From Variovorax paradoxus (lineage in GTDB: Bacteria; Pseudomonadota; Gammaproteobacteria; Burkholderiales; Burkholderiaceae_C): 64,000 nucleotides of DNA. Below the pieces are notes generated by a model. It was not told the DNA's origin and did not search any database. It saw only the letters and a list, made by a program, of their open reading frames with translations. Shown one piece after another: positions 2,534 to 18,443 of this stretch (its first letter is position 1; each line of letters starts with the position of its first letter). The position numbers were made by a program, and so were the translations under genes. Location of the stretch: NCBI RefSeq assembly GCF_022009635.1, contig NZ_CP091716.1, forward strand, positions 6,690,501 to 6,754,500. Direction: 5' to 3'.

Positions 2534-3526
2534 TCAGTCGAGCACCAGGTTCAGGTCGCGAATGAGCGGATGCCAGCGCCCCGACTCGGCCTGCAGCAGC
2601 GCCGCGAACTTGCCGGGGCCGTCGCCCGCGGCCTCGATGCCCAGGTCGGCGAACCGGGCCAGCACCGCCGGGTTGTGGATGGCGCTGGCCACCGCCTGCT
2701 GCAGCCGCGCCACCAGTTCGCTGGGCGTCTTCACCGGCACCACGAGCCCCAGGAGCGTGGCGGCCTCGACGCGCGGCATGCCGAGCTCGGCGAAGGTCGG
2801 CACCGCCGGCAATTGCGCCAGCCGGCGCGGATGCGCCACCGCCAGCGCGCGCAGCTTGCCGCTCTCGATGAAGCGGCGGGCCGCCGCCAGGTCGCACATC
2901 ATGGCCGGCAGCTGGCCGCCGGCCACGTCGGCCAGCGCGGGCGCCGCGCTGCGGTAGGGCACGTGCACCATCTCCAGGCCGGCCTCGCGCTCGAGCAGTT
3001 CCATGGCCAGGTGCTGCGGGCTGCCGGTGCCGGCGGAGGCGAAGCTCACCTTGCCGGGAAAGGCGCGCGCGTCGGCGATGAAGGCGCGGGCGTCTTTCTC
3101 GCCGGTGGACGGGCCGACCAGCAGCACCATCGGCAGCCGGCCCATGAGCGTGACCGGCGCGAAGTCGCGCGCGGGGTTGTAGCTGAGGTTGCGGTAGAGC
3201 GCGGGGTTGAACACCAGCATGCCGTTGTCGGCCGACAGCAGCGTGTAGCCGTCGGCCGGCGCGCGGGCGGCCTCGATGGCGCCCAGCGCGGTGTTGCCGC
3301 CGGCGCGGTTCTCGATGATCACCGGCTGCCCGCTGTCGACCGCCAGTTGGGCGCCCACGGTGCGCGCGACGATGTCGGCGCCGGTGCCGGCCGGGTACGG
3401 CACGATCCAGCGGAAGGGCTTGGCGGGATAAAGAGGCTGCGCCGTCGCGCCCCTGAAACCGACCGACAGGGCGGCTGTGGACAGCAGTTGCAGCAGAAGC
3501 GGTCGGCGGCGGATCATGGGCAGCAT
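2534..3526 (-). CDS. Bug/TctC family tripartite tricarboxylate transporter substrate-binding protein
   Basis: 330 aa with a twin-basic N-terminus (MIRRRP) and a hydrophobic signal ending near ATAQP. The mature part begins YPAKPFRWIVPYPAGTGADI, the signature opening of Bug (Bordetella uptake gene) proteins. NRAGGNTALG, MVHVPYRSAAPALADV and the closing ELVARLQQAV region follow in the expected order. These periplasmic proteins bind small carboxylates or amides for TctAB-type transporters or for signalling. No tctA or tctB gene is nearby, which is usual in Burkholderiales. The ligand is unknown. ATG at 3526 has GGAGA about 9 nt upstream; an ATG 9 bp downstream is an alternative. Confidence 0.9.
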   Translation of the reverse strand: MLPMIRRRPLLLQLLSTAALSVGFRGATAQPLYPAKPFRWIVPYPAGTGADIVARTVGAQLAVDSGQPVIIENRAGGNTALGAIEAARAPADGYTLLSADNGMLVFNPALYRNLSYNPARDFAPVTLMGRLPMVLLVGPSTGEKDARAFIADARAFPGKVSFASAGTGSPQHLAMELLEREAGLEMVHVPYRSAAPALADVAGGQLPAMMCDLAAARRFIESGKLRALAVAHPRRLAQLPAVPTFAELGMPRVEAATLLGLVVPVKTPSELVARLQQAVASAIHNPAVLARFADLGIEAAGDGPGKFAALLQAESGRWHPLIRDLNLVLD

Positions 3527-3602
3527 GGGCGGGCGTCTCCGCCCCCATGTTAGGGCCTGTTCAATCGCGAGACACCGCGGGAGAGGGGCCCGGGGGCGAG
3601 CC

Positions 3603-4817
3603 TCATCCTGCCCTGCTGGTCTTCAGGCCTTGCGCCGCGGCCCAGCCCGCCACGTCCTCGCGCTTGATGGCGGCGGCCATGAGGCCCGGGAACGCATCGG
3701 GCGTGCACGCGAACGAGGGCACCCCCAGCGCGGCCAGCTTGGCGGCCAGGTCGCGGTCGTAGGCCGGCGCGCCTTCGTCGCTGAGCGCCAGCAGCGCGAT
3801 GAACTGCACGCCGGCCTCGACCAGCTCGTTGGCGCGGTGCAGCAGCTTTTCTTCCACGCCGCCTTCGTACAGGTCGGAGATCAGCACGAGGATGGTGTTG
3901 CGCGGCTCGCGGATCAGGCCCTGGCAGTAGCCCACGGCGCCGTTGATGTCGGTGCCGCCGCCCAGCTGCACGCCGAACAGCAGGTCGACCGGGTCCTGCA
4001 GCTGCTCGGTCATGTCGACCACGCTGGTGTCGAACACCACCAGCTTGGTCGCCACCGCCGGCAGGCTGGCCATGACGGCGCCGAAGATGCTCGAATAGAC
4101 CACCGACGCGGCCATGGAGCCGCTCTGGTCGATGCACAGGATCACCTCGCGCTGCGGCTGCCGCGCCTTGCGGCCGTAGCCGACCAGCGACTGCGGCACC
4201 ACCGTGCGGTATTCGGGCTGCCAGTGGCGCAGGTTGGCGCGGATGGTGCGGTTCCAGTCGATCTCCGAATGGCGCGGGCGGCGGTTGCGCTGGCTGCGGT
4301 TGAGCGCGCCGCTCACGGCGCTGCGCATCGGCTCCTCGAGCTTCTTCATGAGCTCGTCGACCACCTTGCGCACCACGGCGCGCGCGGTGTCCTTGGTGCC
4401 GGCCGGAATCACGCTGGCCAGCGCCACGAGGTTGGCCACCAGGTGCACGTCGGGCTGGGCGTTCTCGAGCATCTCGGGTTGCAGCAGCATCTGGCGCAGG
4501 TTGAGCCGCTCCATCGCGTCGCGCTGCATCACCTGCACCACCTGGCTCGGAAAGTACTTGCGGATGTCGCCGAGCCAGCGCGCCACGCTGGGGGCCGAGT
4601 CGCCCCGGCCGCCGCGCTGGCCGCCCTGGCCCAGGCCGCGCCGGCCGTCGGCCTCGTAGAGCGCGGCGAGCGCCATGTCGATCTCGCGCACCCGGCCTTC
4701 CACGGCGCCGCAGCTGGGCGTGGCCTCGCTGCCGAGCACCATGCGCCAGCGCTGCAGGCGGTCGGTGGAGGGCGGCGTCTCGTCCGCGGACGCGGCAACG
4801 GTGTTGGTGGTGTTCAT
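3603..4817 (-). CDS. vWA domain protein of the MoxR/SWIM cluster (YehP-like)
   Basis: 404 aa, starting ATG at 4817 with GGGAG 7 nt upstream. It overlaps the stop of the preceding gene by 4 bp, so translation is probably coupled. The N-terminal 220 residues are helical with a Gly-rich break near 62-72. The von Willebrand A domain follows with a complete MIDAS: D230-x-S232-x-S234, T289 in GGGTDI, and D315 in ISDLYEGG. In MoxR systems the vWA protein is the metal-dependent adaptor that works with the AAA+ ATPase. It closes a seven-gene operon containing MoxR, SWIM, DUF5691 and DUF5682 proteins, and its E. coli counterpart appears to be YehP. The target is unknown. Confidence 0.88.
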   Translation of the reverse strand: MNTTNTVAASADETPPSTDRLQRWRMVLGSEATPSCGAVEGRVREIDMALAALYEADGRRGLGQGGQRGGRGDSAPSVARWLGDIRKYFPSQVVQVMQRDAMERLNLRQMLLQPEMLENAQPDVHLVANLVALASVIPAGTKDTARAVVRKVVDELMKKLEEPMRSAVSGALNRSQRNRRPRHSEIDWNRTIRANLRHWQPEYRTVVPQSLVGYGRKARQPQREVILCIDQSGSMAASVVYSSIFGAVMASLPAVATKLVVFDTSVVDMTEQLQDPVDLLFGVQLGGGTDINGAVGYCQGLIREPRNTILVLISDLYEGGVEEKLLHRANELVEAGVQFIALLALSDEGAPAYDRDLAAKLAALGVPSFACTPDAFPGLMAAAIKREDVAGWAAAQGLKTSRAG

Positions 4818-7171
4818 GCCTTCACTCCCAGCAGTTCCCGCAGCAGCGGCAGCGCGAGCACCGCGCGCGATTCGTCCCAGTCCGCGGCGGCGGTGGCGAC
4901 CGCCGCCGTGCCGCCTGTTCCACCCGTGGCGCCGCGCTTGGCGCGCTCGCCCAGTGCGCGCCGGTCGGCGCCAGAGAAGTCCGCGAAGCTGCGGCGCACC
5001 AGCGGCAGCACCTGCAGGAAGTGTTCTTCGCCCAGCGCCGACAGCCACGCATCGACCAGCGACCACACGGCCTCGTCGTGCAGCAGCACCATCGCGTTGC
5101 GGTTGAGGAAACCTTCGAGCCACGCGGCCGCCTCGGTGGGCGGAGCGCCGACCGAGAGGTTGCGCGCGAGCTGCTGCGAGGCGCCTTCGCTGTCGATCTG
5201 CGCATCGTCGAGCAGCAGCCGGCAGACCACGCCGCGCAGCAGCGGCGCGGCGCTTTCGCCGAACGCAATGGAACGCAGCGCGCCGCGCCATGCGGCGGTG
5301 GTTTCCTCGCCGTCGCGCAGGCGCACCGCGTCGTGCGCGGCGATGAGGCTGGTGCGCAGCGACTCGGCCGCCTCGGCGTCGAGCGCGCCGCATGCAATGG
5401 GCAGGCCGATGGCGCCGCGCACGATCAGGCTGTCGAGCACGTGCGACAGCAGCGCGCTGTCGGTCTGGCGCACGCTGCCGTAGCGGAAAACGTTGGCCAG
5501 CGGCGGCACCGCGCCGATGAGCTGCACCGCGTCGCCGGTGAGCGCGGCGCGGTCTTCGAGCGCGCGGGTCACGGCCTGCACCGCCGCTGGCAGGTCGGCC
5601 AGCAGCACGGTGTCGACCTGCTCGGCCAGCACGCTGAGCGAGCCTTCGCCGGCCAGCTTTTCCATCACGCGCGAGGTGGCGGCATGCGCCACGGTCGCGC
5701 CGAAGCGGCTGGCCTCGATGATGCGCAGCGCGAACTCCGGCTGCCACTGCAGCTGCCACACCTCGTGGAAGGTGCCGCGGCTCGAACGCTGGCCGGCGGT
5801 GGGCGCGCCCCACGGCAGCTCGAGCAGGCGCAGCCGGTGCAGCAGGTGGCTGCGCGCAAGGTCGTTGGGCTGGCGCAGGTCCAGGTCGAGCGTGCGCGCG
5901 GTGGCCTCGGGCTTCAGGCGCAGGCTTTTTTGCTGCTGCTCGATGTCGCGCTGCAGCGGCACGGTCGGCACCTCGGCCGGCACCTGGCCCATGCGGTCGC
6001 CGACGGTCAGGCGCTCGCGGATCAGCGTGAGCGGCGCCTGCTCGCCCATGCAGATCACGCTGCGCACGGCCTCGTCCAGTTCGGGCAGGCCGGGTGCCGG
6101 GCGTTCGCGCAGCGCGGCGAGCGTGTCGGCCAGGCGCGTGGCCTCGATCAGGTGGGCGGAGGAGCAATCGAGGTCGTGTTCGCGCAGGAGCCGCGCCACG
6201 CGCGCGAGCCAGCCGGTGCTGCGGCCCGCCACCTGCTGGCCCTGCTGCCAGAGGTGCTCGTACCAGCCGGGCGAATCGATGCCCGCGCCGTAGCCGCTGG
6301 CGCTGGTGAGGTGGCGGTAGGTCCACGGCACCCAGGTGGCGAGCACCTTGAGCCTGGGCAGGCCCTTGAGCAGCGCGGCGTCGGCCTTGGCGGTGGCCGC
6401 GCCCTGCAGCGCCGGCACGTGCCAGGCGCCGCAGACCACGGCGATGCGCTGGTGGCCGGCCTTGACGGCTTCGCGTATCGATTGCCGCATGAAGGCCTCG
6501 CGCAGTTGCTCGCGCTTCGCGGCGCGCGGGCCGCGGCGGTCTTCGGGCGTTTCGGCGCGCACGGCCGTCATGGCCTCGGCGATGGCGCCGAACAGGTCTT
6601 CGCCGTCGCCGCGCTCCTCGACCATGTGGTTCCACCAGCTCTCGCCGTCGGCATAGCCGGCTGCATGGGCGAGCCAGTCGAAGGGGTCGTCGGGGATCTG
6701 CGGCTGCGCCGCTTCTTCACCGGCTGCGGATTCGGCGGCCGGTGCTTCGTCGTGTTCGTCGTCGCCCAGCGGCTCGCCGGTTTCGGCTTCGGGTGCTTCC
6801 TGAGCCTTGGCGGCCTCGGCTTCGTCGGCCGCGCGCGCGGCCTGCTCGATCGCCATGCGGTGCGACTGCGGCAGGTCGATGAAGCGCACCGGCAGGTTGC
6901 GCGACACGCCCCATTGCAGCGCCTGCCATTCGGGCGAGAACTCGGCGAAGGGATAGAAGGCCGCGAGCCCCGTGTCCTCGCCCGCGTGGATCAGCATCGC
7001 GACCGGCGGGCGCAGGTCGGCATGCGCCATGAAGGACAGCAGGCCTTCGGCGTCTGGCGGCCCTTCGACCAGGATGCAGTCGGGCTGCAGCGACTCGAAG
7101 GCGCGCAGCAGGCTGCGCGCGCAGCCGGGCCCGTGGTGGCGGATGCCGAAGTAGTGCAGCGGAGAGCCCAT
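4814..7171 (-). CDS. DUF5682 family protein (YehM-like)
   Basis: 785 aa and cytoplasmic-looking, with no signal or membrane segments. It opens with YFGIRHHGPGCARS and LVEGPPDAEG, and near residue 240 has VVCGAWHVPAL. The spaced His/Glu elements recall the ChaN/TraB/EreA type of fold, but that relation is my inference. An acidic Ala/Glu-rich linker (about residues 115-165) separates the first segment from the rest. The C-terminal 400 residues are helical and unassigned. The match to DUF5682 rests on the first segment and on gene order: this family sits with MoxR, vWA and SWIM genes in many bacteria, including E. coli yehM. No clear ribosome site precedes ATG 7171, so the start is less certain. 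Confidence 0.82.
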   Translation of the reverse strand: MGSPLHYFGIRHHGPGCARSLLRAFESLQPDCILVEGPPDAEGLLSFMAHADLRPPVAMLIHAGEDTGLAAFYPFAEFSPEWQALQWGVSRNLPVRFIDLPQSHRMAIEQAARAADEAEAAKAQEAPEAETGEPLGDDEHDEAPAAESAAGEEAAQPQIPDDPFDWLAHAAGYADGESWWNHMVEERGDGEDLFGAIAEAMTAVRAETPEDRRGPRAAKREQLREAFMRQSIREAVKAGHQRIAVVCGAWHVPALQGAATAKADAALLKGLPRLKVLATWVPWTYRHLTSASGYGAGIDSPGWYEHLWQQGQQVAGRSTGWLARVARLLREHDLDCSSAHLIEATRLADTLAALRERPAPGLPELDEAVRSVICMGEQAPLTLIRERLTVGDRMGQVPAEVPTVPLQRDIEQQQKSLRLKPEATARTLDLDLRQPNDLARSHLLHRLRLLELPWGAPTAGQRSSRGTFHEVWQLQWQPEFALRIIEASRFGATVAHAATSRVMEKLAGEGSLSVLAEQVDTVLLADLPAAVQAVTRALEDRAALTGDAVQLIGAVPPLANVFRYGSVRQTDSALLSHVLDSLIVRGAIGLPIACGALDAEAAESLRTSLIAAHDAVRLRDGEETTAAWRGALRSIAFGESAAPLLRGVVCRLLLDDAQIDSEGASQQLARNLSVGAPPTEAAAWLEGFLNRNAMVLLHDEAVWSLVDAWLSALGEEHFLQVLPLVRRSFADFSGADRRALGERAKRGATGGTGGTAAVATAAADWDESRAVLALPLLRELLGVKA

Positions 7172-7206
7172 TTTTCAGTGCGTCGGGAAAATGAAGATGC
7201 CGGGGC

Positions 7207-9537
7207 TCAGAGCCCGTAGCGCGCTTCCATGGCCTCGTGCCATTCGGTCGGCTCGCCGGCCGCGCGGGCCAGCTCGGTCCAGCACAGCTGGTGGCCCTTG
7301 CACAGCGCCGCCACGCGCGCCGCGATGGCGCGCGGCGGCACGTTGGCGGGTGCCGTCACTGCAAGGTAGAGGCCGGGAAGGTCGGCTTCGTCGCCGTCTT
7401 CTTCGTCATCGCCGCCTTCCCCGTCTTCGCCTCCCGCGTCGGCATCGCTCACCCGGTAGTTGTCGTTGCTGTACTGCCAGGTGCTCCAGCCCGCCTCGTG
7501 GAGCGCGTCGCGCAGGGCGCTCACGCTTTCCTCGCCCGGGTGCACGCCGTCGATCATGTAGCTCGGGCCGTACGGGCCCTTCTCCAGCACGTGCAACGGC
7601 GCGGTGAAGACGCGGGTGTAGGTGCGCAGTTCTTCCTCGTCCTCGGGCGGCTGCTCGGCCAGCTTGGGCTCGAACACCACCCAGTCGTCCAGGCGCTGGC
7701 CGAGGCCGCGCGGCGAGGGCTGCACGATGCGCGCGGTGGCCGGGCCGGTGCGGCGCGCGAGCACGTCGCGCTCGCGGCCGTTTTCCTCGCAGCGCAGGTA
7801 GACCAGGCCCCAGTCTTCCTCGATGACGGCGTCGTCGGGCTCGCCGGCCTCGAGTTCCATCTCGAGCGCGCGGGCCTGCGCGCGCACGTCGGCCCACAGG
7901 CCTGCCGCGCTGGCGGCGATCAGCAGCTCCCAGCGGCGGCCCGGCTCGGGCGCTTCGTCGGCGGCAAGCACCATGCGGCGCTGCGCCACGGCCGTGTCGA
8001 AGTCCTTCAGTTCCATGGCCGCGTCGGCCCAGAGGCGGCGCGTGGCCGTGGCCTCGGGGTCGTGCGCCAGCACCTGCTCGACCAGCGGGCCGACCTGCGC
8101 GTAGCGCCCTTCCCTGAAGGCGATGCGCGCGCGGTACCACGCGGCCATGGCCGGCTGCGCGGCCTCGATGCGGCGCGCCTGTTCCTCGATGGCGTCCAGG
8201 TCGCCGGCGCTGAAGCACAGGCCGAACCAGTGGTTCTGCAGCGCGACCGATTGCGGCGCCGCCAGCACCATGGCCTGCAGCCGGCTGCGCGCCTCGTCGT
8301 GGCAGCCGTAGTTCGACAGTGCGGAGGCCAGCAGCATCGCCAGCCCCTCGTCGCCGGGCAGCGCCTGGTGCGCCTGTTCCAGCCACTGGATGACGGTCTC
8401 GTTCGACAGGCCCTCGGCCTCGGGCGAGCGCAGCCAGCCGGGCAACTCTTCGGGTGCGCAGGGCGCGGGCCTCGGCACGACGGCGGCGAGCGCCTGCCCG
8501 GCGCGCCGCACCTTGTCGGCGGCGCCGAAGTCCTCGCGCAGCAGCGGCACGTGATGGCCCGCACGCGCCACGGCCTGCGCCGCCAGCCACGGCACCTGCC
8601 GCGCGCCGGCCAGTTCGGCCTGCGCCAGCGCGAGGTCGATCAGCAGGCGGTGGCTGCCGACGGTGTGCAGGTGCTCGATGGTGGTCCGCAGCGCGTGGCC
8701 CAACGCGGGCGTGTTGAGTTCGGGCAATGCGCGCGCGGCGGCCACGGCGGCGCGGCACCACGACACATGGTCGGCCACCTCGATGTCGCCGAATGCCGGC
8801 AGCAGGTCCCAGCCGGCACGTGGATCGCCGGCCAGCGCGAGCGCGCGGCTGCGCTGCAGCAGGCGGGCCGACTGCTCGCGGCGATCGTCCTCGTCGGCTT
8901 CGTCCTCGGAGTCGTCGAGCAGCTTGAGCGCGGTGTGCGGGTCGCCGGCCGCGAGCCATTGCTCGACCTCGGTGGTGACGAACAGCGTGGTCACTTCCTC
9001 GCCAGCGCGGCGCTGCGCGTCGCGCTGGCTCTTCAGGTACAGCACGGCCTCGCGCGGCTGGCCCTGGTCGCCCATGGCATTGGCGCGCTCGATGCTCAGG
9101 CAGCCGAAGCAGCCCCAGCTCGGGTCGATGCGCGCCAGCGTCTCGTCGCAGACCGCGAGGCGCTCGTTGGCCCAGCCGGGCCCGTCGACATTGGCGTAGG
9201 TGGCCACCAGGTCCTGCGTGACGCACACGCTCTGCGGGCAGCCCTGGGTCTTGTCCTGGTGCGCCTGCTCGTAGGCATCGACCACTTCGCCGAGCTGAGA
9301 CTCGCCGTGATGGCGCGCCACGCGCGAGGCGCACAGCCAGTGCTTGAAGTACACGTCGAGCCACGCGATGCCCAGGCCGCGCGCGCTGGCCAGCGCCTCG
9401 GGCACCAGCGCCTCGACCAGCGCATGGTTGCCCTGGAACTGCTGGTGCGGCACGTCGTGAATCAGGTAGGCCAGGCGCTGCTGGCCTTCTTCCTCGAGCC
9501 GGTCCGACAGGTCGTTGACCCAGGCGAAGCTGTCCAT
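7207..9537 (-). CDS. Large tetratricopeptide-repeat protein of the MoxR/Hsp90-like operon
   Basis: 776 aa, helical throughout most of its length. TPR-like helical pairs are clearest in residues 380-560 (for example YGCHDEARSRLQAM and GRYAQVGPLVEQVLAHDP). The C-terminal 200 residues are different: probably mixed alpha/beta, with a very acidic low-complexity loop (Asp/Glu/Gly-rich, encoded near 7385-7440). ATG 9537 is preceded by GAGAGAGGAT. The gene lies 28 bp downstream of an Hsp90-like gene. In eukaryotes TPR proteins are typical Hsp90 co-chaperones, so a partnership with the neighbouring Hsp90-like ATPase is a reasonable inference, not shown here. There is no signal peptide, so it should act in the cytoplasm. 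Function is unknown. Confidence 0.8.
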   Translation of the reverse strand: MDSFAWVNDLSDRLEEEGQQRLAYLIHDVPHQQFQGNHALVEALVPEALASARGLGIAWLDVYFKHWLCASRVARHHGESQLGEVVDAYEQAHQDKTQGCPQSVCVTQDLVATYANVDGPGWANERLAVCDETLARIDPSWGCFGCLSIERANAMGDQGQPREAVLYLKSQRDAQRRAGEEVTTLFVTTEVEQWLAAGDPHTALKLLDDSEDEADEDDRREQSARLLQRSRALALAGDPRAGWDLLPAFGDIEVADHVSWCRAAVAAARALPELNTPALGHALRTTIEHLHTVGSHRLLIDLALAQAELAGARQVPWLAAQAVARAGHHVPLLREDFGAADKVRRAGQALAAVVPRPAPCAPEELPGWLRSPEAEGLSNETVIQWLEQAHQALPGDEGLAMLLASALSNYGCHDEARSRLQAMVLAAPQSVALQNHWFGLCFSAGDLDAIEEQARRIEAAQPAMAAWYRARIAFREGRYAQVGPLVEQVLAHDPEATATRRLWADAAMELKDFDTAVAQRRMVLAADEAPEPGRRWELLIAASAAGLWADVRAQARALEMELEAGEPDDAVIEEDWGLVYLRCEENGRERDVLARRTGPATARIVQPSPRGLGQRLDDWVVFEPKLAEQPPEDEEELRTYTRVFTAPLHVLEKGPYGPSYMIDGVHPGEESVSALRDALHEAGWSTWQYSNDNYRVSDADAGGEDGEGGDDEEDGDEADLPGLYLAVTAPANVPPRAIAARVAALCKGHQLCWTELARAAGEPTEWHEAMEARYGL

Positions 9538-9565
9538 CGTGTTGATCCTCTCTCTTTGGTTTTTT

Positions 9566-11428
9566 CTAGGAGGCCGCGCGCGGCGCGCAGAGCGCGGCCA
9601 CGGCCTGGCTGAAATCGGCCAGCAGCTCGACCAGCGGCGGCTGGCCCTTCAGTTCCTCCCCGCCCGGCGCCATGATGGCCTTGAAGCTGCGCAGCAGCGC
9701 GACCGCATGCGCGGGCACGGCGCGGCCTTCGCGGTGGCTTTGCAGCAGCGCCTGGATGGCCGGGTTGTCGAGGTTCACGTAAAGCCGCGCCGACACGCTC
9801 GCGTCGATGCGCTGGGTGAACGCGCGCGCCAGGCTGAGCGCGGCGCCGGCCATGCGCTTCCGGGCCTCGTCGGTCTCCAGCCGCGCCTTCAACTGCGCCT
9901 CGCGGTCGGGCACGGCGATCAGCGGCAGCTCGGGCGACACGAAGCGCGCGGGCACCACCAGCTCGCCCCATGCGAGGTGTTCGCGCAGCCATGCGAGTTC
10001 GCTCTCGGGCAGGTCTTCGCCGCGGAACATGCGGGCGTTGCCGGCGGCGGTGCCGATCTCGATGAGCTGCACGCCGCGATCGCGCACCCACTGGCGCAGG
10101 AAGCCGGCCACGGCATAGCGGTCGCCGCGCGCCACGGGCACCTGCAGCGCGCGGAACAGCACGTCCTCGAAGCCGCCGCTCTGGCCCAGGCTCAGGTGGA
10201 TGCGGCCTTCGCGCACCAGGCTGCGCACCGGCAGGTCGCCCTGGCTGGTGGGCAGGCGCACGGCGTCGGCCAGCATGGTGAAGAGCTCGTCCTCGCACAG
10301 CGCGGCGCCCAGCAGCGCCTCGTTGTGGCGCGTGAGCAGGCGGCTCCAGGCCGGTGCCTGCGACTGCGAGAGGTCGGCCAGACCGCGGATCAGCGCGTCC
10401 TGGATATGGGCGCGCGTGGCCTGGTAGGCGGCGTCGCGCTGCAGATCTTCGCGGCTGGCGGTGGGCGTGAGCGCGTTCGACTCGATCACGCCGCCGATGA
10501 AGCCGGCCCACACCGGCAGCAGGTCGCGCGCCTCGTCGTCCAGCAGCATGCCGCGCACGTACACGCTCAGGTGGCGGTTGTCGCTGGTGCCGTAGGTGGC
10601 GCCGTCCTGCACCCACAGCAGGCCGCGCGCGTCGCTGTCGCCCTCGGGCTCCACGGGGATCACGCAGATGGGCTCGAAGTGCCGCTCCATGCGCGCCGCG
10701 AAGGCCATGCGCTGGCGCTGCAACACCGCGGGGTGCACCACCACGCCGTCGGCGGCGGCGCGCCACGGCGGCGCGTCGGCATTGACGCATTCGTCGTCGA
10801 ACCACAGCGGCTCGCGCAGCAGCGCGCAGTAGCGCCCCAGCACCTTCTTGAGCACGCCGGCCGAGCACAGGTGGTTGAAGTCGCTGCGCATCGCCAGATG
10901 GATCTCGGTGCCCACGGGCCGTGCGTCGATGGCCTGCACCGCGTAGCGCCGCCCGTCCGACGAGCGGTAGCGCCAGCCTTCGCCGGGCGACTGGAACGAA
11001 GTGCTGTTCACCAGCACCTGCTCGGCCACCACGAAGGCCGAGAGAAAGCCCAGCCCGAACAGGCCGATGAGCTCGTCGCTGCCGTCCTTGTCGGACGCGC
11101 GCAGCTGCCGCGTGTAGCCGTTGCCCAGCGTGGCGAGGTACCGGTGCAGTTCCTGCTCGGTCAGGCCCGAGCCGTTGTCGCGGATGACGAGGGTCTGCGC
11201 CGCCTCGTCGGCCAGCACGTCGATGCGGCCGGCCTCGGTGAACGACGGGTCTTCGAGGCGGCGGCGCGAGATGGAGTCATGCGCGTTCTGGATCAGCTCG
11301 CGGATGGCCACCACCGGCGTGGAATACAGGTGCTTGGCCAGCACGTCGAACAGGCCGTCCAGGTGCACCTGGGTGGTCTGCAGCGCCGGAGTCTGCGGGG
11401 GAAGGTCCGGCGGTGGAAAGTCCGACAT
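9566..11428 (-). CDS. Divergent Hsp90-like GHKL ATPase
   Basis: 620 aa, starting at ATG 11428, 8 bp after the MoxR stop. The N-terminal Bergerat ATP-binding fold is complete: N-box E44-L-I-Q-N48-A-H-D51, G1 box DNGSGL (84-89), G2 box GLFGLGFLSAF (122-132), and GTEIHL near 172. The order and spacing are those of HtpG, but the middle and C-terminal parts have diverged strongly from the true HtpG encoded 5 kb away. Hsp90-family proteins of about this size paired with a TPR gene occur in other bacteria. It is probably an ATP-driven chaperone or conformational switch for the MoxR/vWA/DUF5682 partners. The client is unknown. The presence of a second, clearly distinct Hsp90 gene argues against redundancy. 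Confidence 0.85.
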   Translation of the reverse strand: MSDFPPPDLPPQTPALQTTQVHLDGLFDVLAKHLYSTPVVAIRELIQNAHDSISRRRLEDPSFTEAGRIDVLADEAAQTLVIRDNGSGLTEQELHRYLATLGNGYTRQLRASDKDGSDELIGLFGLGFLSAFVVAEQVLVNSTSFQSPGEGWRYRSSDGRRYAVQAIDARPVGTEIHLAMRSDFNHLCSAGVLKKVLGRYCALLREPLWFDDECVNADAPPWRAAADGVVVHPAVLQRQRMAFAARMERHFEPICVIPVEPEGDSDARGLLWVQDGATYGTSDNRHLSVYVRGMLLDDEARDLLPVWAGFIGGVIESNALTPTASREDLQRDAAYQATRAHIQDALIRGLADLSQSQAPAWSRLLTRHNEALLGAALCEDELFTMLADAVRLPTSQGDLPVRSLVREGRIHLSLGQSGGFEDVLFRALQVPVARGDRYAVAGFLRQWVRDRGVQLIEIGTAAGNARMFRGEDLPESELAWLREHLAWGELVVPARFVSPELPLIAVPDREAQLKARLETDEARKRMAGAALSLARAFTQRIDASVSARLYVNLDNPAIQALLQSHREGRAVPAHAVALLRSFKAIMAPGGEELKGQPPLVELLADFSQAVAALCAPRAAS

Positions 11429-11436
11429 CGGCGCGC

Positions 11437-12516
11437 TCACAGCTGCTCGCGGCAGGCGCGGTACAGGTCCTTCCAGTCGCTGCGTTCCTTCACCACGGTC
11501 TCCAGGTACTCCTTCCACACCACCTGGTCCTGCACCGGGTCCTTGATGACGGCGCCGAGCAGGCCCGACGCCACGTCGGCCGAGCGCAGCACGCCGTCGC
11601 CGAAGTGGCCGGCCAGCGCCATGCCGCTGTTGATGACCGAGATGGCCTCGGCGGTGGAGAGCGTGGAGCTGGGCGACTTGATGCGCGTCTTGCCGTCCTC
11701 GGTCTGGCCGTTGCGCAGCTCGCGGAAGATCTGCACCACGCGGCGCACTTCCTGCAGCGCCGGCGGCTCGGCCGGCAGCGCAAGCGCGCGGCCCAGTTCG
11801 CCCACGCGCTTGACCACGATCTGCACTTCCTCTGCCTCGCTCGACGGCACCGGCAGCACCACGGTGTTGAAGCGGCGCTTGAGCGCGCTCGACAGCTCGT
11901 TCACGCCCTTGTCGCGGTTGTTGGCGGTGGCGATCACCGAGAAGCCGCGTACCGCCTGCACCTCGCTGCCGAGTTCGGGAATGGGCAGCGTCTTTTCGGA
12001 GAGCACGGTGATCAGCGTGTCCTGCACGTCGGCCGGGATGCGGGTGAGTTCCTCGACGCGCGCGATCTTGCCCAGGCGCATGGCGTGCACCAGCGGGCTG
12101 GGCACCAGCGCCTTGTCGGACGGGCCGTGGGCCAGCAGCTCGGCGTAGTTCCAGCCGTAGCGCAGCTGCTCTTCGCTGGTGCCGGCGGTGCCCTGGATCA
12201 GCATGGTGGAGTCGCCGCTCACGGCGGCGGCCAGATGCTCCGACACCCACGACTTGGCCGTGCCCGGCACGCCGTACAGCAGCAGCGCGCGGTCGGTCGC
12301 CAGCGTGGAGACCGCGATTTCCATCAGCCGCGAATTGCCGATGTACTTGGGGCTGACTTCGAAGCCGCTGGCGAGCTTGCCGCCCATCAGGTAGGTGAGC
12401 ACGGCCCAGGGCGAGAGCTTCCAGTTGGCGGGGCGCTGCCGGTCGTCGACCTTCTGTAGCGCATCGAGTTCTTCGGCGAATTGCTGTTCGGCATGCTGGC
12501 GCAGGACATTGCTCAT
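11437..12516 (-). CDS. MoxR-family AAA+ ATPase, YehL-like
   Basis: 359 aa. Walker A is GVPGTAKS (residues 82-89). The Walker B position reads ARVEELTR, with VEE at 154-156 in place of the usual LDE. Sensor 1 is VIATANN (194-200), and the arginine-finger region is LKRRF (212-216). Length and motifs match the YehL branch of MoxR ATPases, which remodel or insert cofactors into partners together with vWA proteins. It starts inside the stop of the DUF5691 gene (4-bp overlap 12513-12516), so the two are translationally coupled. It is followed by the Hsp90-like gene, an arrangement not seen in E. coli, where yehL is directly followed by yehM. Cytoplasmic; substrate unknown. Confidence 0.9.
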   Translation of the reverse strand: MSNVLRQHAEQQFAEELDALQKVDDRQRPANWKLSPWAVLTYLMGGKLASGFEVSPKYIGNSRLMEIAVSTLATDRALLLYGVPGTAKSWVSEHLAAAVSGDSTMLIQGTAGTSEEQLRYGWNYAELLAHGPSDKALVPSPLVHAMRLGKIARVEELTRIPADVQDTLITVLSEKTLPIPELGSEVQAVRGFSVIATANNRDKGVNELSSALKRRFNTVVLPVPSSEAEEVQIVVKRVGELGRALALPAEPPALQEVRRVVQIFRELRNGQTEDGKTRIKSPSSTLSTAEAISVINSGMALAGHFGDGVLRSADVASGLLGAVIKDPVQDQVVWKEYLETVVKERSDWKDLYRACREQL

Positions 12517-14048
12517 GGACGGCCTTGAGATGAAGAAGAAGATGAAAGGGTGAGGAACAGCTGGCGCGCGCGCACGATGCGCGCGGTGTCGGCCAGCGCG
12601 TTGGCGGTGCCGGGTGTTTCTTCGGCGGCGCGCGGCAGGTCGGCCAGCGCGGGCAGCGCCGAGGAATGCAGCAGCGCGGCGGCGCTGGTGAGCACCTGGC
12701 GCAGCATGTAGTCGTTGGCCAGGTCGCCGCGCACCACGCGCATGCGCAGCGCGGCGGCCAGCCTGGCGGACAGCTCGGCCGACGGCGTTTCGCCGGGCGC
12801 GCAGGCCTGGTCGGCAAAGCCCACCACGTCCTGCACGCCGTTGCCTTCGGCGCCGAGTTCAGCGAGCCAGTGGCGCTCGCGCCGCGCGCGCGGCAGCAGC
12901 GCGAGCAACTGGCCGACCCAGGCACGCTGGGCGCGCGGACGATCGAGCATGGCATCGCACCAGTCGTGGTCGGGCGCGGCGACGACGGCGTCGTTCCAGC
13001 CGCGCAGCAGCGCGTCTTTCCAGTCGCCAGCGGCGGCCCAGTCGAGCAGCGCGGCGGGCGTCATGCCGGTGCGCGCGGTCCACCACGACAGCGGTGCCTG
13101 GCGCACGAGCTGGTAGAGCCACCATGCGCGCTCGCCGAGGCCCTCGTGCGTGGGGCGCGCGGGGTCGATGGCGTCGTCCTTCCAGCGCGGGTCGGCGGCT
13201 TCGGGGGCATCGATGCGCCATGCGGCGCCGTCCTGCTTCAGCAGCGGGTCGAGGAAGGCCGCGATGCGCTGCGCGTGCGCGCTCTGCGGCAGGCGCTGCA
13301 GCAGTTCGACTGCCGCCTGGCGGACGTCGCGGGCGCGGTCCTTGAGCTGGGCGTCGATCAGCGTCTCGTCGTCGGGGCCGAGGTTCTCGGCGAGCGCGCC
13401 GAGCAGCGCGGCGCGGTCCTTGGCGGGGAGTTGCTGCAGCTCGGCGGCGAGGCGTTCGCGCGCGCCGGCCGGGTCGCCCTGGCGCTGTTCGCGCAGCACC
13501 GCAACGCGTTGGTCGAGGCTGCCTTCGTCCCAGCGCGTCCGCGCATCGGCCTGCTCGCTGGCGCCGACGGCGTAGCGCCAGTCGTCGTTGCGCGCGGCGA
13601 GCCAGAGGCCGCGTTCGCCGAGCGCGGGCGTCACGACGGGCCGCAGGTCGATGGCGCGGCGGCCGGCGTCGAGCGCCACGGGCAACAGGCTGTTCGGCAG
13701 GCGCAGGCCGGCGGCCGCGAGCGCTGCCAGGCCTTCGTGCTGCAGGCGCAGCGGGCCGCTCGACAGCGCATCGGCAATGGCGGCCTGCAGCGCGGGTTCC
13801 TTGAGTTCGGGGCGTTCGTCGTTGGCGGCGACGGGCGCGTCGGATGGCGGCAGGCTCGGCGCGACGAAGCCCGCGCGCCGGCCGACAGCGACGGCCCCCG
13901 CCATGCGCAGCAACTGGCCCTGTGCCTCGCCGCCTTGCAGCGCTTGCAGCAGTGCGGCGAATTCGCCGGCCATGCCTCCGGCCGGAGGCACGGGCTGGCG
14001 CGAGGTGCCGACGAGCGCAGCCTGCAGCAGTTGGTTCCAGTGGCTCAT
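12513..14048 (-). CDS. DUF5691 domain protein
   Basis: 511 aa, Ala/Leu/Arg-rich and almost entirely helical, with repeated elements such as RDVRQAAVELLQRLP that suggest HEAT-like packing. The N-terminus MSHWNQLLQAALVGTSR and the later RWKDDAIDPARP region are consistent with the DUF5691 family, which occurs in gene clusters with SWIM zinc-finger and MoxR proteins; placement leans on that context. It overlaps the MoxR start by 4 bp and follows the SWIM gene by 61 bp. A Ser-rich tail near residues 500-507 precedes the stop. No catalytic motif is visible, and a scaffold or target-recognition role is only a guess. Cytoplasmic, without signal or membrane segments. Confidence 0.75.
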   Translation of the reverse strand: MSHWNQLLQAALVGTSRQPVPPAGGMAGEFAALLQALQGGEAQGQLLRMAGAVAVGRRAGFVAPSLPPSDAPVAANDERPELKEPALQAAIADALSSGPLRLQHEGLAALAAAGLRLPNSLLPVALDAGRRAIDLRPVVTPALGERGLWLAARNDDWRYAVGASEQADARTRWDEGSLDQRVAVLREQRQGDPAGARERLAAELQQLPAKDRAALLGALAENLGPDDETLIDAQLKDRARDVRQAAVELLQRLPQSAHAQRIAAFLDPLLKQDGAAWRIDAPEAADPRWKDDAIDPARPTHEGLGERAWWLYQLVRQAPLSWWTARTGMTPAALLDWAAAGDWKDALLRGWNDAVVAAPDHDWCDAMLDRPRAQRAWVGQLLALLPRARRERHWLAELGAEGNGVQDVVGFADQACAPGETPSAELSARLAAALRMRVVRGDLANDYMLRQVLTSAAALLHSSALPALADLPRAAEETPGTANALADTARIVRARQLFLTLSSSSSSQGRP

Positions 14049-14109
14049 TCGATGACCTCCGTGCTTCGCACTGCGGTGCGAGCTTGCTTGGGGCGGCCCG
14101 GCGCTGCGC

Positions 14110-15462
14110 TCATATCCGCACTCCCGTCAGCGTCCAGACCGGCGCGCTGCCGACCGCCGCACCCGTCGGCCATGCGGTGAGCGGCGCGAACTGTTCGCCG
14201 TCCCATTCGCCGAACACTCGCAACGGCGCGCCGCCCGAATGGGCCAGCAGTTGCCAGGCTTCCTGCGCGGCGATCTGCATCGGCAGCGCCTGCGGCGCGC
14301 CGCCCAGGCGCAGCCACCAGCGCTCGCCGTCGCGGCTGGGCACGGCGTCGGGCCACACCATCGGCAGCAGCGGCTGCCAGGGGTTGGCGGCGATCTGCCG
14401 CGCCATGCGCTGCCATTCGTCATCGGGCGTGTCATTGGCGGGGGCAGCCGTGGCGGGCGCATCGGACGGCAGCTCGGCCACCAGCGCGCGCTGCGAGGCG
14501 TGGCCCGGATAGAAGCACAGCACCGCCGCGCGTTCGCTGCCGCTGACCCAGCCGGTCTCGAAGCCGCGGCCGCCGTGGGCGTAGTCGAGCAGCAGCGCGC
14601 GGCGCCCGCTCGCGCGGCCTTGCAGCCATACATGGCGCTCGACCAGCCGGGTGTCGCGCTCGTCGATGCACTGGCCCAGCACCAGCCAGTGGTCGCTCAC
14701 GCGTTCGCCCTCGGCGAGCAGCGCCTCGCGGTCCTGCGGCCAGCCGAGCGCGGTGCGCAGGTCGGCCAGCGTGGCAGGCGACAGCGATTCGCGGCGCGGC
14801 ACCGCATCGACGATCAGCTGCAGCCGCCCGAGCCGGTCGAGCAGCCGCGCGGGCCAACCCTCGCCCACGCCGATGAGTTCGGCCGCCTGCGTGATGCGCT
14901 GGCCGAGCCCCGGCGCCTGCGCGTCGACCATGCGCGCGGCCATCGCGCTCCAGGCTTGCTGCTGCTCGCTGCCGAGCGAGGCCAGGCCGCGCTGCGTCTG
15001 GTCGTCGAGCCAGCGCGCCAGTTCCTGCGTGCCGGCCTCGATGCGCTTCCAGCGCTGCGCGTCGCGCTTGGCGGCCGCGGCGGGATCGGGCGCGGCCGGC
15101 GGTTCGGCGGCGCGGGCTTCTTTCTTTTCGGCTTTCTCGCGGCGCGAGGCGAGCCATTCGGCCACCCACGGCGGCGGCTCGCCCTGCGTGAAGCTGGCTT
15201 CGCTCTGCGCGCGCAGCAGCATCAGCGCCAGGCCGTGCTTGCAGGGGAATTTGCGGCTCGGGCAGGAGCAGCGGAACACCGGGCCCGTGAGGTCGACCTG
15301 GGTCTGGTACGGCTTGCTGCCGCTGCCCTGGCATTCGCCCCACACGGCGGTGTCGGAGAACGCGAGCGTGGGCCACTTGGCCGGTGCGAGCAAACCCTTG
15401 GCGGCCTTGGCCGACGCATCGTCGGGGGCGAGCGCCAGGACGGCTTCTGTGCTGAGACTCAT
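14110..15462 (-). CDS. SWIM zinc-finger protein (YehQ-like), first gene of the MoxR operon
   Basis: 450 aa from ATG 15462, chosen because GAGGG lies about 8 nt upstream; the open frame extends 38 codons further but without a usable start signal. The SWIM motif C65-x-C67-x6-C74-x-H76 (FRCSCPSRKFPCKH) is intact, so the protein should bind one zinc. SWIM domains usually bind DNA or proteins. A charged Lys/Glu/Ala linker (about 106-135) joins it to a large C-terminal region containing ALLLDYAHGGRGFETGW. In E. coli a SWIM protein (YehQ) accompanies the MoxR protein YehL. Being promoter-proximal, it is likely the first cistron of the seven-gene operon. Confidence 0.85.
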   Translation of the reverse strand: MSLSTEAVLALAPDDASAKAAKGLLAPAKWPTLAFSDTAVWGECQGSGSKPYQTQVDLTGPVFRCSCPSRKFPCKHGLALMLLRAQSEASFTQGEPPPWVAEWLASRREKAEKKEARAAEPPAAPDPAAAAKRDAQRWKRIEAGTQELARWLDDQTQRGLASLGSEQQQAWSAMAARMVDAQAPGLGQRITQAAELIGVGEGWPARLLDRLGRLQLIVDAVPRRESLSPATLADLRTALGWPQDREALLAEGERVSDHWLVLGQCIDERDTRLVERHVWLQGRASGRRALLLDYAHGGRGFETGWVSGSERAAVLCFYPGHASQRALVAELPSDAPATAAPANDTPDDEWQRMARQIAANPWQPLLPMVWPDAVPSRDGERWWLRLGGAPQALPMQIAAQEAWQLLAHSGGAPLRVFGEWDGEQFAPLTAWPTGAAVGSAPVWTLTGVRI

Positions 15463-15514
15463 CGGGGCACCCTCGCGCCGGTCCGCGGCGCGGATGATTG
15501 AAAAGACGCGGCCA

Positions 15515-16126
15515 TCAGGGCGCGACGGGATTGCCCGGCGTGCCGGCCTCGCGGGCCGAGGCCGCCGCGGCCGCAACGGCCGGCGTGCGGTAGGTCACGT
15601 TCACCGCAGGCTCGGGCGGCGGGCGCGTGATCTTGAAGAGAGGCGGCCTGGCGGGCGCGGCAGGAGCCGTCGGAGCGGCGGCAGCCTGGGCCACGGGCGC
15701 GATCGGCGTGAAAGGCGCGGCAGGCGTCGAATACAGCACGGGAGCGGGCGTACCCGGCGCCGGCGTCACGGTGACCGCGGCCGGAGCCACGGTCGACGCC
15801 GGCACGACGGGCGCCGCGGCGGCCTTCGGGTCATAGAGCACCGCGCCCTTGCTGATCCCCGTGGCCACCGGCCCCACGCCGACACCGATGCCGGTCGAGC
15901 CCGACACCTGGCCGCCGTTGTTCACGGCCACGCCCGCGCCGAGCGGGCCGAAGCCGGTGTTGAGCCCGACCGAGAAATTGCCGTCCTTGGTGGCGCCGAG
16001 CCCCAACGAGAGCCCCGGCACCAGCGGAATGCCGATCTGGTAGTGAGAACAGCCGCCCATCAGGAGCAACAACAGCGCCGCCGGAACGGTGGCCGTTGCT
16101 GCTGCACGGATGCGCGGCCGTGCCAT
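15515..16126 (-). CDS. Gly/Pro/Ala-rich lipoprotein coupled to htpG
   Basis: 203 aa. The N-terminus has two arginines, a hydrophobic core and a lipobox ending LLMGGC, so it should be lipidated and anchored in the envelope. The first half of the mature part is Gly-rich with repeated short strands (GLGATKDGNFSVGLNTGFG), as in small beta proteins. The second half is Pro/Ala-rich and probably disordered. The ATG overlaps the htpG TGA by one base (TGATG), implying coupled translation and possible co-expression on heat shock. I do not recognise a family. A functional link to HtpG, a cytoplasmic protein, is not obvious. Confidence 0.75.
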   Translation of the reverse strand: MARPRIRAAATATVPAALLLLLMGGCSHYQIGIPLVPGLSLGLGATKDGNFSVGLNTGFGPLGAGVAVNNGGQVSGSTGIGVGVGPVATGISKGAVLYDPKAAAAPVVPASTVAPAAVTVTPAPGTPAPVLYSTPAAPFTPIAPVAQAAAAPTAPAAPARPPLFKITRPPPEPAVNVTYRTPAVAAAAASAREAGTPGNPVAP

Positions 16127-18162
16127 CACACCAGCAGCGCGTTGACGCGCCTCACGTAGGCCGCCGGATCGGCCGGCAGGCCGCCTTCGGCCAGCAGGGC
16201 CTGGTCGAACAGGATGTTCGCGAGGTCGTCGAAGTGCGACGAGCCTTCGAGCTTCTTCACCAGCGGATGCTCGGCGTTGACTTCGAGCACCGGCTTGAGC
16301 TCGGGCGCGGGCTGGCCGGCCTGCTTGAGCATGCGCGCGAGCTGCGTGCTCATGCCGCCGTCCTGCACCACGAGGCAGGCGGGCGAATCGACAAGGCGGG
16401 TGGTCACGCGCACGTCTTCGGCCTTGTCCTTGAGCGCTTCCTTGAGCTTTTCGAGCAGCGGCTTGAACGACTCGGCGGCTTCCTCGGCGGCCTTCTTCTC
16501 GGCTTCGTCCTGCAGCTTGCCGAGGTCGACCGCGCCCTTGGCCACGCTCTGCAGCGGGGTGCCGTCGAATTCGTTCAGGTAGTTCAGTGCCCACTCGTCG
16601 ACGCGGTCGGTCATGAGCAGCACCTCGATGCCCTTCTTCTTGAAGACTTCGAGCTGCGGGCTGTTCTTGGCAGCGGCCAGGGTGTCGGCCGTGATGTAGT
16701 AGATCGCGTCCTGGCCTTCCTTCATGCGTGCCTTGTAGTCCGCGAAGCTCACGCTCACCGCGTCGGTGGTGGTCGAGGCGTAGCGCAGCAGCTTGGCGAT
16801 GCGCTCGCGGTTGCCCATGTCCTCGCCCAGGCCTTCTTTCAGCACCGCGCCGAACTCGGCGTAGAACTTGGCGTACTTGCCCGATTCGTCGGCAGCCGCG
16901 GCGGCGGTTTCGGCGGCGGTGGGCGCGTTCTTGTCGACCACGTCGGTCACGGCTTCGGTCGGCTCCGGCGCCGGCACCGATTCGCCCGAGCCCACGTCGA
17001 TCTTGCCTTCGCCGCTTTCAGGGCCGGTCTTCTGCTTCTTCGCCAGGTCTTCGAGCATGCCGAGCACGCGCTTGGTGCTGCCTTCGCGGATCGCCTTCAC
17101 GTCGCGGCTTTCCTGCAGCAGCTCGCGGCTCACGTTCAGCGGCAGGTCGGCCGAGTCGATCACGCCCTTGACGAAGCGCAGGTAGCTGGGCAGCAGCGCC
17201 TCGGCGTCGTCCATGATGAAGACGCGCTTGACGTAGAGCTTGACGCCCGCGCTCTTGTCGCGGTTCCACAGGTCGAACGGGGCCTTGGCGGGGATGTAGA
17301 GCAGCTGCGTGTATTCGGTGCTGCCTTCCACGCGGTTGTGGCTCCAGGCGAGCGGCGCCTCGTAGTCGTGGCTGATGCTCTTGTAGAACTCTTCGTACTG
17401 CTCGGGGGTGATGTCCTTCTTGGGGCGGCTCCACAGGGCGTTGGCCTTGTTGACGGTTTCCCATTCGCCGGTCTTCACCATGTCGCCGGGCTGGTCGTTC
17501 TCGCCTTCCTTCCACTCTTCCTTTTCCATGAGGATGGGCAGGGAGATGTGGTCGGAGTACTTGCCGACGATCTGCTTGAGCTTCCAGGCGTTGAGGTATT
17601 CGTCGGCGTCGTCGCGCAGGTGCAGCGTGATGCTGGTGCCGCGCTCGGCGCGGGTGATGTCGGCCACCTCGAAGTCGCCGGCGCCGCCGCTGACCCAGCG
17701 CACGCCCTGGTCGGCCGGCAGGCCCGCGCGGCGCGATTCGACGCTGATCCTGTCCGCCACGATGAAGCCCGAATAGAAGCCCACGCCGAACTGGCCGATG
17801 AGCTGCGCGTCGGCCTTCTGGTCGCCGCTGAGCTTGCTCATGAAGTCCTTGGTGCCGCTCTTGGCGATGGTGCCGAGGTTGTCGATGGCTTCCTGGCGCG
17901 ACAGGCCGATGCCCTTGTCGGTGATGGTGATGGTGCGCGCGGCCTTGTCGAAGCTCAGGCGCACGTCGAGCTCGGACTGGCCTTCGTACAGCTCGGGGTG
18001 GTCGAGCGCCTCGAAGCGCAGCTTGTCGCATGCGTCCGATGCATTCGAGATCAGCTCGCGCAGGAAGATTTCCTTGTTCGAATAAAGCGCATGCGTGACG
18101 AGGTGCAGCAGTTGCGCGACTTCAGCCTGGAAGGGGAGTTTGGTATTGGAGGAATCAGCCAT
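16126..18162 (-). CDS. htpG: HtpG, bacterial Hsp90 chaperone
   Basis: 678 aa. All Hsp90 ATPase motifs are present: [29 protein letters not shown] and GTSITLHL, then a middle domain with [14 protein letters not shown] and a C-terminal dimerisation region. It is longer than E. coli HtpG (624 aa), mainly because of an inserted acidic, Ala/Pro-rich linker of about 50 residues (Lys/Gly start at [10 protein letters not shown], ending before [10 protein letters not shown]) in the middle domain. A sigma-32 type promoter lies 76-104 bp upstream. It refolds or holds client proteins in the cytoplasm. The downstream lipoprotein overlaps it by one base. Confidence 0.97.
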
Positions 18163-18237
18163 GGAAAAAGAAATATCGGATCCAAAAAATTCTAAGTCGA
18201 TGCGGCGGCCGCAAGGTGACGGCGCGCCGACTTTCTC

Positions 18238-18408: not shown

Positions 18409-18443
18409 GCGGCAACGCCCCGGGAAAACAGGGATGTCGTTTG

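What the first reader, a model, noticed from the sequence alone, without database searches (positions are those of the whole stretch)
3603..15462. Expanded YehL-type MoxR/vWA/SWIM operon that has taken in an Hsp90-like ATPase and a TPR protein
Seven same-strand genes with overlaps or gaps mostly under 65 bp: SWIM, DUF5691, MoxR, Hsp90-like, TPR, DUF5682, vWA. E. coli keeps a related set (yehL, M, P, Q) without an Hsp90 or TPR gene. Two ATP-driven remodellers (AAA+ and GHKL) plus a zinc-finger and a metal-dependent vWA adaptor suggest one large regulated machine, perhaps a conflict or stress system. No function is known for the set.
Basis: partly seen in the sequence, partly recalled or inferred. 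Interest (0 to 1): 0.82.

Follow-up and report, generated by a model that had tools for sequence, protein, structure and literature searches.

The report
Hsp90-TPR pair inside a MoxR operon
In a Variovorax-like bacterium, two genes that elsewhere travel as a pair on their own (a divergent Hsp90 chaperone and a repeat-protein partner) sit inside a five-gene operon for a different ATP-driven remodelling machine, which hints that the two machines may share a job that is still unknown.

Summary
In detail: seven co-directional genes (minus strand, 15462-3603) encode SWIM, DUF5691, MoxR AAA+, Hsp90-like, TPR, DUF5682 and vWA proteins, with gaps of at most 61 bp. Comparison shows two modules. Module A (SWIM-DUF5691-MoxR-DUF5682-vWA) is a sister of E. 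coli yehL-M-P-Q and lies beside htpG in 17 of 18 long-type operons of the genus. Module B (Hsp90-like + TPR) is an independent pair: TPR follows in 79 of 80 fetched loci, and only 2 of the 80 also hold module A. The pair sits between MoxR and DUF5682 in 4 of 18 such operons in the genus and 4 of 20 in the family sample; the others lack it there. The inserted Hsp90s form one clade and are under purifying selection. So 'taken in' is supported, 'one machine' is plausible but unproven, and a conflict role has little support. Best guess, inferred: a NorQD-like MoxR/vWA maturation machine that recruited an Hsp90-TPR pair for its client. The TPR protein has four near-invariant cysteines; DUF5682 may be a Tiki/TraB-type hydrolase (weak, mixed evidence).

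The parts
14110..15462 (-). SWIM zinc-finger protein, 450 aa (first gene; module A)
   Evidence: Pfam SWIM 24.3 bits over cut-off; C65, C67, C74, H76 at 97% or more in 23 rows
12513..14048 (-). DUF5691 protein, 511 aa (module A)
   Evidence: Pfam DUF5691 398.6 bits
11437..12516 (-). MoxR-type AAA+ ATPase, 359 aa (module A)
   Evidence: Pfam AAA_5 127.8 bits; Walker A GVPGTAKS and a conserved E155-E156 (24 rows)
9566..11428 (-). Divergent Hsp90-like ATPase, 620 aa (module B, inserted)
   Evidence: Pfam HSP90 and HATPase_c_3 over cut-off; aligns to E. coli HtpG over profile positions 17-361; E44, N48, D84, R326, Q330 kept in 97% or more of 83 rows
7207..9537 (-). TPR protein, 776 aa (module B, inserted), with C100, C105, C143, C146
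   Evidence: Pfam TPR_19; the four cysteines invariant in 58 rows and 97% or more in 82 rows; AlphaFold2 pLDDT 93.8
4814..7171 (-). DUF5682 protein, 785 aa (module A)
   Evidence: Pfam DUF5682 887 bits; two GxxH motifs, G9-H12 and G248-H251
3603..4817 (-). CoxE-type vWA protein, 404 aa (last gene; module A)
   Evidence: Pfam VWA_CoxE 175.6 bits; DQSGS, GGTD and D315 kept in 22 rows
7172..11436 (-). Inserted segment (Hsp90-like and TPR genes with their short spacers) between the MoxR stop and the DUF5682 start
   Evidence: Absent in 14 of 18 long-type operons of the genus, where MoxR and DUF5682 are 25-168 bp apart

Best explanation
A composite operon. Shown by sequence comparison: a five-gene MoxR/vWA module (SWIM-DUF5691-MoxR-DUF5682-vWA) holds, between MoxR and DUF5682, an Hsp90-like/TPR pair that elsewhere stands alone; the pair lies in one run of tightly spaced genes and has been kept under purifying selection. 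Inferred: MoxR forms a ring and vWA is its adaptor, as in NorQ/NorD, remodelling a client that may need a metal; DUF5682 is that client or a hydrolase acting with it; SWIM and DUF5691 recognise partners; the Hsp90-like ATPase with its TPR partner holds or folds the same client before or after MoxR/vWA acts. My odds: about 0.9 for the composite history, about 0.35 for a NorQD-like maturation role, about 0.25 for a physical hand-over between the modules.
For: TPR follows the Hsp90-like gene in 79 of 80 fetched loci, with module A in only 2 of 80. In the family sample 4 of 20 long-type operons are occupied and 16 are not, always at the same place; in the genus 4 of 18 and 14. Junctions lie between the MoxR stop and the DUF5682 start. 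The Hsp90-like proteins of occupied operons form one clade apart from 22 free-standing ones (100/100). In the genus the occupied operons form one clade (100/100, one change), and the pair has dS 0.12-0.29 to the window (core genes 0.07-0.39) and dN/dS 0.07-0.29. Spacers on either side of the pair are 8 and 35 bp, leaving little room for its own promoter. Precedent: NorQ/NorD (PMC9976466, PMC13036017, abstracts) and the proposed role of RavA-ViaA (PMC3893208, passages).
Against: No physical or functional link between the modules was tested. In the 299-genome phylum sample the Hsp90-like protein (4 genomes) and DUF5682 (13) overlap only in the own genome. Most long-type operons do without the pair. 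Nothing identifies a client, and no metal target lies in the operon. Module A homologues in E. coli have no function that I found.
Confidence: 0.55

Rival explanations
1. Transcriptional hitchhiking: the Hsp90-like/TPR pair landed in an expressed operon and serves its own clients; there is no functional link with MoxR/vWA/DUF5682.
For: The pair stands alone in 78 of 80 fetched loci; 14 of 18 long-type operons of the genus work without it; no overlap beyond the own genome in the phylum sample.
Against: The same slot is used in three genera; the inserted proteins share one origin; in the family sample the pair was found only in this operon (4 of 4); both genes are under purifying selection.
Confidence: 0.3
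2. A conflict (anti-phage or stress-death) system, with MoxR/vWA as the NTP-dependent core and the other genes as sensor and effector.
For: Patchy distribution; MoxR-vWA modules are the core of described conflict systems (PMC7159879, passages; PMC10910872, passages); DUF5691, TPR and DUF5682 evolve faster than MoxR.
Against: PADLOC gives only generic ATPase hits. All 17 genus operons whose flank could be read lie beside htpG. MoxR scores under the bpMoxR cut-off (21.3 of 27). The main text of PMC7159879 has no occurrence of SWIM, HSP90 or Yeh. Few mobile records: over 80% or more of the protein, Hsp90-like in 6 of 72,556 plasmids and 2 of 50,697 phage records, DUF5682 in 19 plasmids and 0 phage records.
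Confidence: 0.12
3. The seven-gene form is old in this group, and the five-gene operons have lost the pair.
For: Occupied operons are not one clade on the module A tree of the family (3 changes; one-clade test p-AU 1.4e-41), while their Hsp90-like proteins are one clade; one gain with several losses gives that pattern.
Against: The three long-type operons read from other families lack the pair (L148, L159, L160). In the genus the occupied form is one well-supported clade among empty ones, though the root there is weak. By my count a single gain needs three losses (four events) against three gains.
Confidence: 0.1

Closest known systems
E. coli yehL-yehM-yehP-yehQ (YehL subfamily of MoxR ATPases)
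   Same: MoxR, DUF5682, vWA (CoxE type) and SWIM genes in one run; MoxR 40%, DUF5682 29%, vWA 37% identity
   Different: Different gene order, no DUF5691, yehI (DUF4132) upstream, YehQ without BLASTP similarity to the window SWIM protein at E 1e-3, no Hsp90-like/TPR pair
Free-standing Hsp90-like/TPR pair of Xanthomonas, Stenotrophomonas, Pseudomonas, some E. coli and others (PA1068-PA1069 in P. aeruginosa; this mapping is recalled from the neighbouring bra genes)
   Same: Hsp90-like protein (mostly 52-59% identity to the window) directly followed by the TPR gene (79 of 80 loci); same catalytic residues and cysteines
   Different: Not next to MoxR/vWA; the operon copies form a separate clade
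HtpG / Hsp90
   Same: N-terminal ATPase and middle domains; aligns to E. coli HtpG over positions 17-361, E 9.4e-47
   Different: Below the curated HtpG cut-off (193 of 371 bits); the genome has its own htpG next door; no alignment past about position 363 in the best stretches of the 60 PDB sequences shown
NorQ/NorD and RavA/ViaA MoxR-vWA chaperones
   Same: MoxR ATPase with a vWA partner, Walker A and MIDAS residues kept
   Different: Different subfamily by name (PMC3893208, passages); extra SWIM, DUF5691 and DUF5682 genes; no known client
Eukaryotic Hsp90 with TPR co-chaperones (Hop and others)
   Same: An Hsp90-type ATPase paired with a TPR protein
   Different: No MEEVD tail on the Hsp90-like protein; the TPR protein is a long superhelix closest to MalT domain III and APC/C or Rap proteins. 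An abstract states that bacteria lack a Hop orthologue (PMC7688965, search listing)

Membership tests
YehL-type MoxR/vWA operon | MoxR ATPase closest to YehL among the E. coli set, with Walker A | tested here: met
   40% identity over 350 residues to YehL; GVPGTAKS. RavA was not compared
YehL-type MoxR/vWA operon | Linked DUF5682, CoxE-type vWA and SWIM genes | tested here: met
   All over Pfam cut-offs
YehL-type MoxR/vWA operon | YehI (DUF4132) gene in the locus, as in K-12 and 16 of 17 short-type loci | tested here: not met
   0 of 22 long-type loci by tblastn at E 1e-3; so filed as a sister type, not as yehL-M-P-Q itself
Hsp90 superfamily | GHKL ATPase residues and the catalytic arginine loop of the middle domain (roles recalled) | tested here: met
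   E44, N48, D84, R326, Q330 at 97% or more in 83 rows; HSP90 and HATPase_c_3 over cut-off
Hsp90 superfamily | C-terminal dimerisation domain | tested here: inconclusive
   PDB alignments end near 363, but NCBIfam PRK14083 (HSP90 family) aligns to residues 21-575; not modelled
HtpG (NCBIfam PRK05218) and HSP90 family protein PRK14083 | Score over the curated cut-off | tested here: not met
   193 of 371 and 267.8 of 455 bits
Eukaryotic-type Hsp90/TPR co-chaperone pair | C-terminal MEEVD motif on Hsp90 | tested here: not met
   Window protein ends in CAPRAAS; none in the consensus of 18 relatives
vWA-MoxR ternary conflict systems | MoxR domain of those systems (Pfam bpMoxR) | tested here: not met
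   21.3 bits, cut-off 27; the other subsystems of that paper were not tested by profile
Tiki/TraB/ChaN superfamily (for DUF5682) | Two GxxH motifs (hallmark recalled) | tested here: met
   Both in 22 of 22 long-type loci and YehM; second in 17 of 17 and first in 7 of 17 short-type loci
Tiki/TraB/ChaN superfamily (for DUF5682) | Profile or fold similarity | tested here: inconclusive

The most novel reading that the evidence does not exclude
Bacteria have a dedicated Hsp90-plus-TPR co-chaperone machine, distinct from HtpG and conserved as a two-gene unit across phyla. In this lineage it has been wired into a MoxR/vWA remodeller, so that one client passes between an Hsp90 cycle, an AAA+ ring and a DUF5682 metal hydrolase.
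Probability: 0.2. Interest if true: 0.82.

Novelty: new variant of a known kind. Interest (0 to 1): 0.52.

Why it matters
The operon links two uncharacterised ATP-driven systems that both have relatives in well-studied bacteria: yehL-M-P-Q in E. coli K-12 and the Hsp90-like/TPR pair in Pseudomonas, Xanthomonas and some E. coli. The more general point is the pair: a divergent bacterial Hsp90 that in the loci seen here almost always has a TPR gene directly behind it, although an abstract states that bacteria lack an orthologue of the TPR co-chaperone Hop (PMC7688965, search listing). Whether a bacterial Hsp90 works with a TPR partner is directly testable. The natural with/without contrast inside one genus (4 and 14 operons) makes the functional link to MoxR/vWA testable too.

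Tried and rejected
Defence reading: PADLOC gave only generic ATPase-domain hits (IetA for MoxR; TmtA and a type II REase for the Hsp90-like protein). Plasmids: 304 records match the Hsp90-like protein, 6 over at least 80%; 36 match DUF5682, 19 over at least 80%. Phage records: 19 match the Hsp90-like protein, 2 over at least 80%, the best being a Salmonella record filed there; 1 matches DUF5682, 78% covered. Judged unlikely, not excluded.

Third partner of the free-standing pair: clustering ORFs of 25 loci (23 free-standing, 2 with module A) found no family in more than 4 loci, apart from the pair and frames that overlap it.

Co-occurrence in trans: of 29 hand-picked genomes with an Hsp90-like hit, 16 match DUF5682 and 15 pass the cut-off; without the two linked operons that is 13 of 27. 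Two of the 29 (G589, G845) have only 37-42% identical Hsp90-like hits. In the phylum sample, where the same handles recur, the overlap is the own genome only. Not used as evidence. The genome searches for the Hsp90-like protein used E 1e-100, so more distant homologues are not counted.

DUF5682 as a Tiki/TraB hydrolase: hhalign failed (probability 0.1-1.1%; unrelated controls 0.1-0.4%). A TraB alignment did not find 7w5z by sequence in the PDB. Tetrahymena complex IV has a TraB-family subunit (PMC10060162, passage), but that chain E of 7W5Z is this subunit is not verified. No PDB sequence matches DUF5682 at E 1. Kept as a lead.

TPR fold: matches are TPR superhelices in general.

Heat-shock induction: in PMC4957987 (passages) PA1069 falls (log2 -1.98) and htpG rises (2.83); PA1069 as the TPR gene is recalled. 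PA1069 also stands in a pull-down list of PMC13411936 (passage); not followed up. The PA1068 of PMC9995270 is a strain name.

Promoters: 0 sigma-70-like sites in 3300-18600 against 0.3 expected, so uninformative.

Own error: L130 was labelled occupied because the Hsp90-like query matched its htpG; one search repeats the tree with the right label (and without L141, L148, L159, L160), and one search is not used.

Literature: searches. No paper of the held library has the words DUF5682 or DUF5691. I saw no title or abstract start in these listings that describes this operon or the pair; most papers were seen as listings only.
Full report
OBSERVATION. The seven genes are real and correctly placed. 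In order of transcription on the minus strand: SWIM 15462-14110, DUF5691 14048-12513, MoxR 12516-11437, Hsp90-like 11428-9566, TPR 9537-7207, DUF5682 7171-4814, vWA 4817-3603. Spacing is 61 bp, 4-bp overlap, 8, 28 and 35 bp, 4-bp overlap. The genome has 7.95 Mb in 2 contigs. The genus is most likely Variovorax: a genome marked 'same genus' has a contig of the same length (141,955 bases) as that of Variovorax sp. OK212, and the closest named DUF5682 proteins are from Variovorax.

CATALYTIC STATE. Key residues are kept at 97% or more in the fetched relatives. Hsp90-like (83 rows): E44, N48, D84, the glycine-rich lid and S325-R326-E327 with Q330. MoxR (24 rows): Walker A and E155-E156. vWA (22 rows): DQSGS, GGTD and D315. 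SWIM (23 rows): C65, C67, C74, H76. TPR (82 rows): C100, C105, C143, C146. The roles of these residues are recalled. The Hsp90-like protein aligns to E. coli HtpG over positions 17-361 (E 9.4e-47) but is below the curated cut-offs for HtpG (193 of 371 bits) and PRK14083 (267.8 of 455): a divergent Hsp90, not an HtpG.

MODULE B IS A SELF-STANDING PAIR. A genome-contig scan with 18 Hsp90-like proteins confirmed 303 places; the best 80 were returned. In 79 of 80 the TPR gene follows (estimated gap -4 to 176 bp, median 25); in the other, L038, the contig ends 24 bases after the match. Only L016 (Variovorax sp. OK212) and L017 (Diaphorobacter caeni) also hold MoxR, vWA, SWIM, DUF5691 and DUF5682; 69 of the 80 loci are longer than 20 kb. 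The 80 lean towards Xanthomonas and Stenotrophomonas but include Actinomycetota, a Myxococcota genome and a Chloroflexi MAG. No third family recurs in more than 4 of 25 diverse loci. In E. coli 245 of 5426 genomes hold the pair over at least 80%, all on chromosomes; in the one inspected it lies between fdhD and yiiG.

MODULE A IS A SISTER OF YEH. DUF5682 loci fall into two score classes: long type (about 820-890 bits in this family) and short type (mostly about 250-390). E. coli YehM scores 331. Of 17 short-type loci 16 have a YehI homologue; of 22 long-type loci none has. Of 19 long-type loci fetched from the family, 17 show SWIM, DUF5691, MoxR, DUF5682 and vWA in that order, as does the window; L135 has no vWA match and L141 is a 5.8-kb contig.

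OCCUPIED AND EMPTY SITES. Family sample, 299 genomes: the Hsp90-like protein in 4, DUF5682 in 33, long type in 20. All 4 Hsp90-like genes lie in a long-type operon between MoxR and DUF5682; 16 of 20 lack the pair. Genus, 101 genomes: the Hsp90-like protein in 4, DUF5682 in 42, long type in 18. Again all 4 lie in that operon, and 14 lack the pair, with 25-168 bp between MoxR and DUF5682. htpG lies upstream in 17 of 18; the contig of the other (L262) starts inside DUF5691. The empty sites gave no tblastn match to the pair at E 1e-3, and junctions place the pair between the MoxR stop and the DUF5682 start. Because empty operons also have htpG as neighbour, its nearness to the Hsp90-like gene looks coincidental.

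HISTORY. In the genus the four occupied operons form one clade on five module A genes (100/100, one change; 17 of the 18 operons used). dS between the window and the other occupied operons is 0.12-0.29 for the pair and 0.07-0.39 for module A genes; dN/dS of the pair is 0.07-0.29. Across the family the five occupied rows of a 20-row tree are not one clade (3 changes; p-AU 1.4e-41), yet their Hsp90-like proteins are (100/100, stem 0.57, 37 rows with 22 free-standing loci). That clade also holds P0002, P0003 and P0005-P0008, whose neighbourhoods I do not know. One capture of the pair by this operon type, then spread between operons or several losses, fits; the data do not decide between the two.

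HOW IT PROBABLY WORKS. NorQ forms a hexamer whose pore takes a finger of the NorD vWA domain, and its activity remodels NorD for metal insertion into the target (PMC9976466, PMC13036017, abstracts). RavA-ViaA is proposed to mature complex I (PMC3893208, passages). By analogy MoxR and vWA remodel a client here, with SWIM and DUF5691 as recognition subunits and DUF5682 as client or enzyme; the captured pair would add a holding or folding step. Beyond gene identity and conserved residues this paragraph is inference. The link between the modules rests on gene spacing, a shared slot, retention and purifying selection. Against it stand the lone pair in 78 of 80 loci, the majority of operons without it, and the lack of overlap in the phylum sample.

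VERDICT. Observation confirmed; 'taken in' right; the Yeh comparison refined; conflict role weak; function open. A new variant of a known kind. The wider interest lies in the Hsp90-TPR pair and in a natural with/without contrast inside one genus.

Noticed in passing
window 16126-18162 and 15515-16093 (-): A true htpG and a small ORF starting like a lipoprotein (no Pfam match) lie directly upstream on the same strand; htpG is there in 17 of 18 long-type operons of the genus, with or without the pair.
   Followed up: partly
window 7207-9537 (TPR protein): Four near-invariant cysteines, C100, C105, C143 and C146, in 58 and 82 aligned relatives: a possible metal or redox site.
   Followed up: partly
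window 4814-7171 (DUF5682): Two GxxH motifs and a possible Tiki/TraB-like N-terminal domain, on weak and mixed evidence.
   Followed up: partly
L149-L158, L161-L163, L165-L168: A second, short type of DUF5682 operon, closer to E. coli yehI-L-M-P-Q, occurs in the same families and sometimes the same genome (G171, G503, G579).
   Followed up: partly
L265 and L266: 168 bp lie between MoxR and DUF5682, with nearly the same palindrome-rich spacer in both; elsewhere in the genus the empty site is 25-41 bp.
   Followed up: no
L141 (G306): An 836-bp gap between MoxR and DUF5682 without a match to any of the window proteins.
   Followed up: no
window 18441-20747 (+): A divergently oriented 768-aa ORF upstream of htpG with an SdrD_B-like stretch just under the Pfam cut-off (28.9 of 29.7 bits).
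   Followed up: no
L044, L170 (E. coli): The Hsp90-like/TPR pair is a sporadic chromosomal pair in 245 of 5426 E. coli genomes, between fdhD and yiiG in the one inspected.
   Followed up: partly
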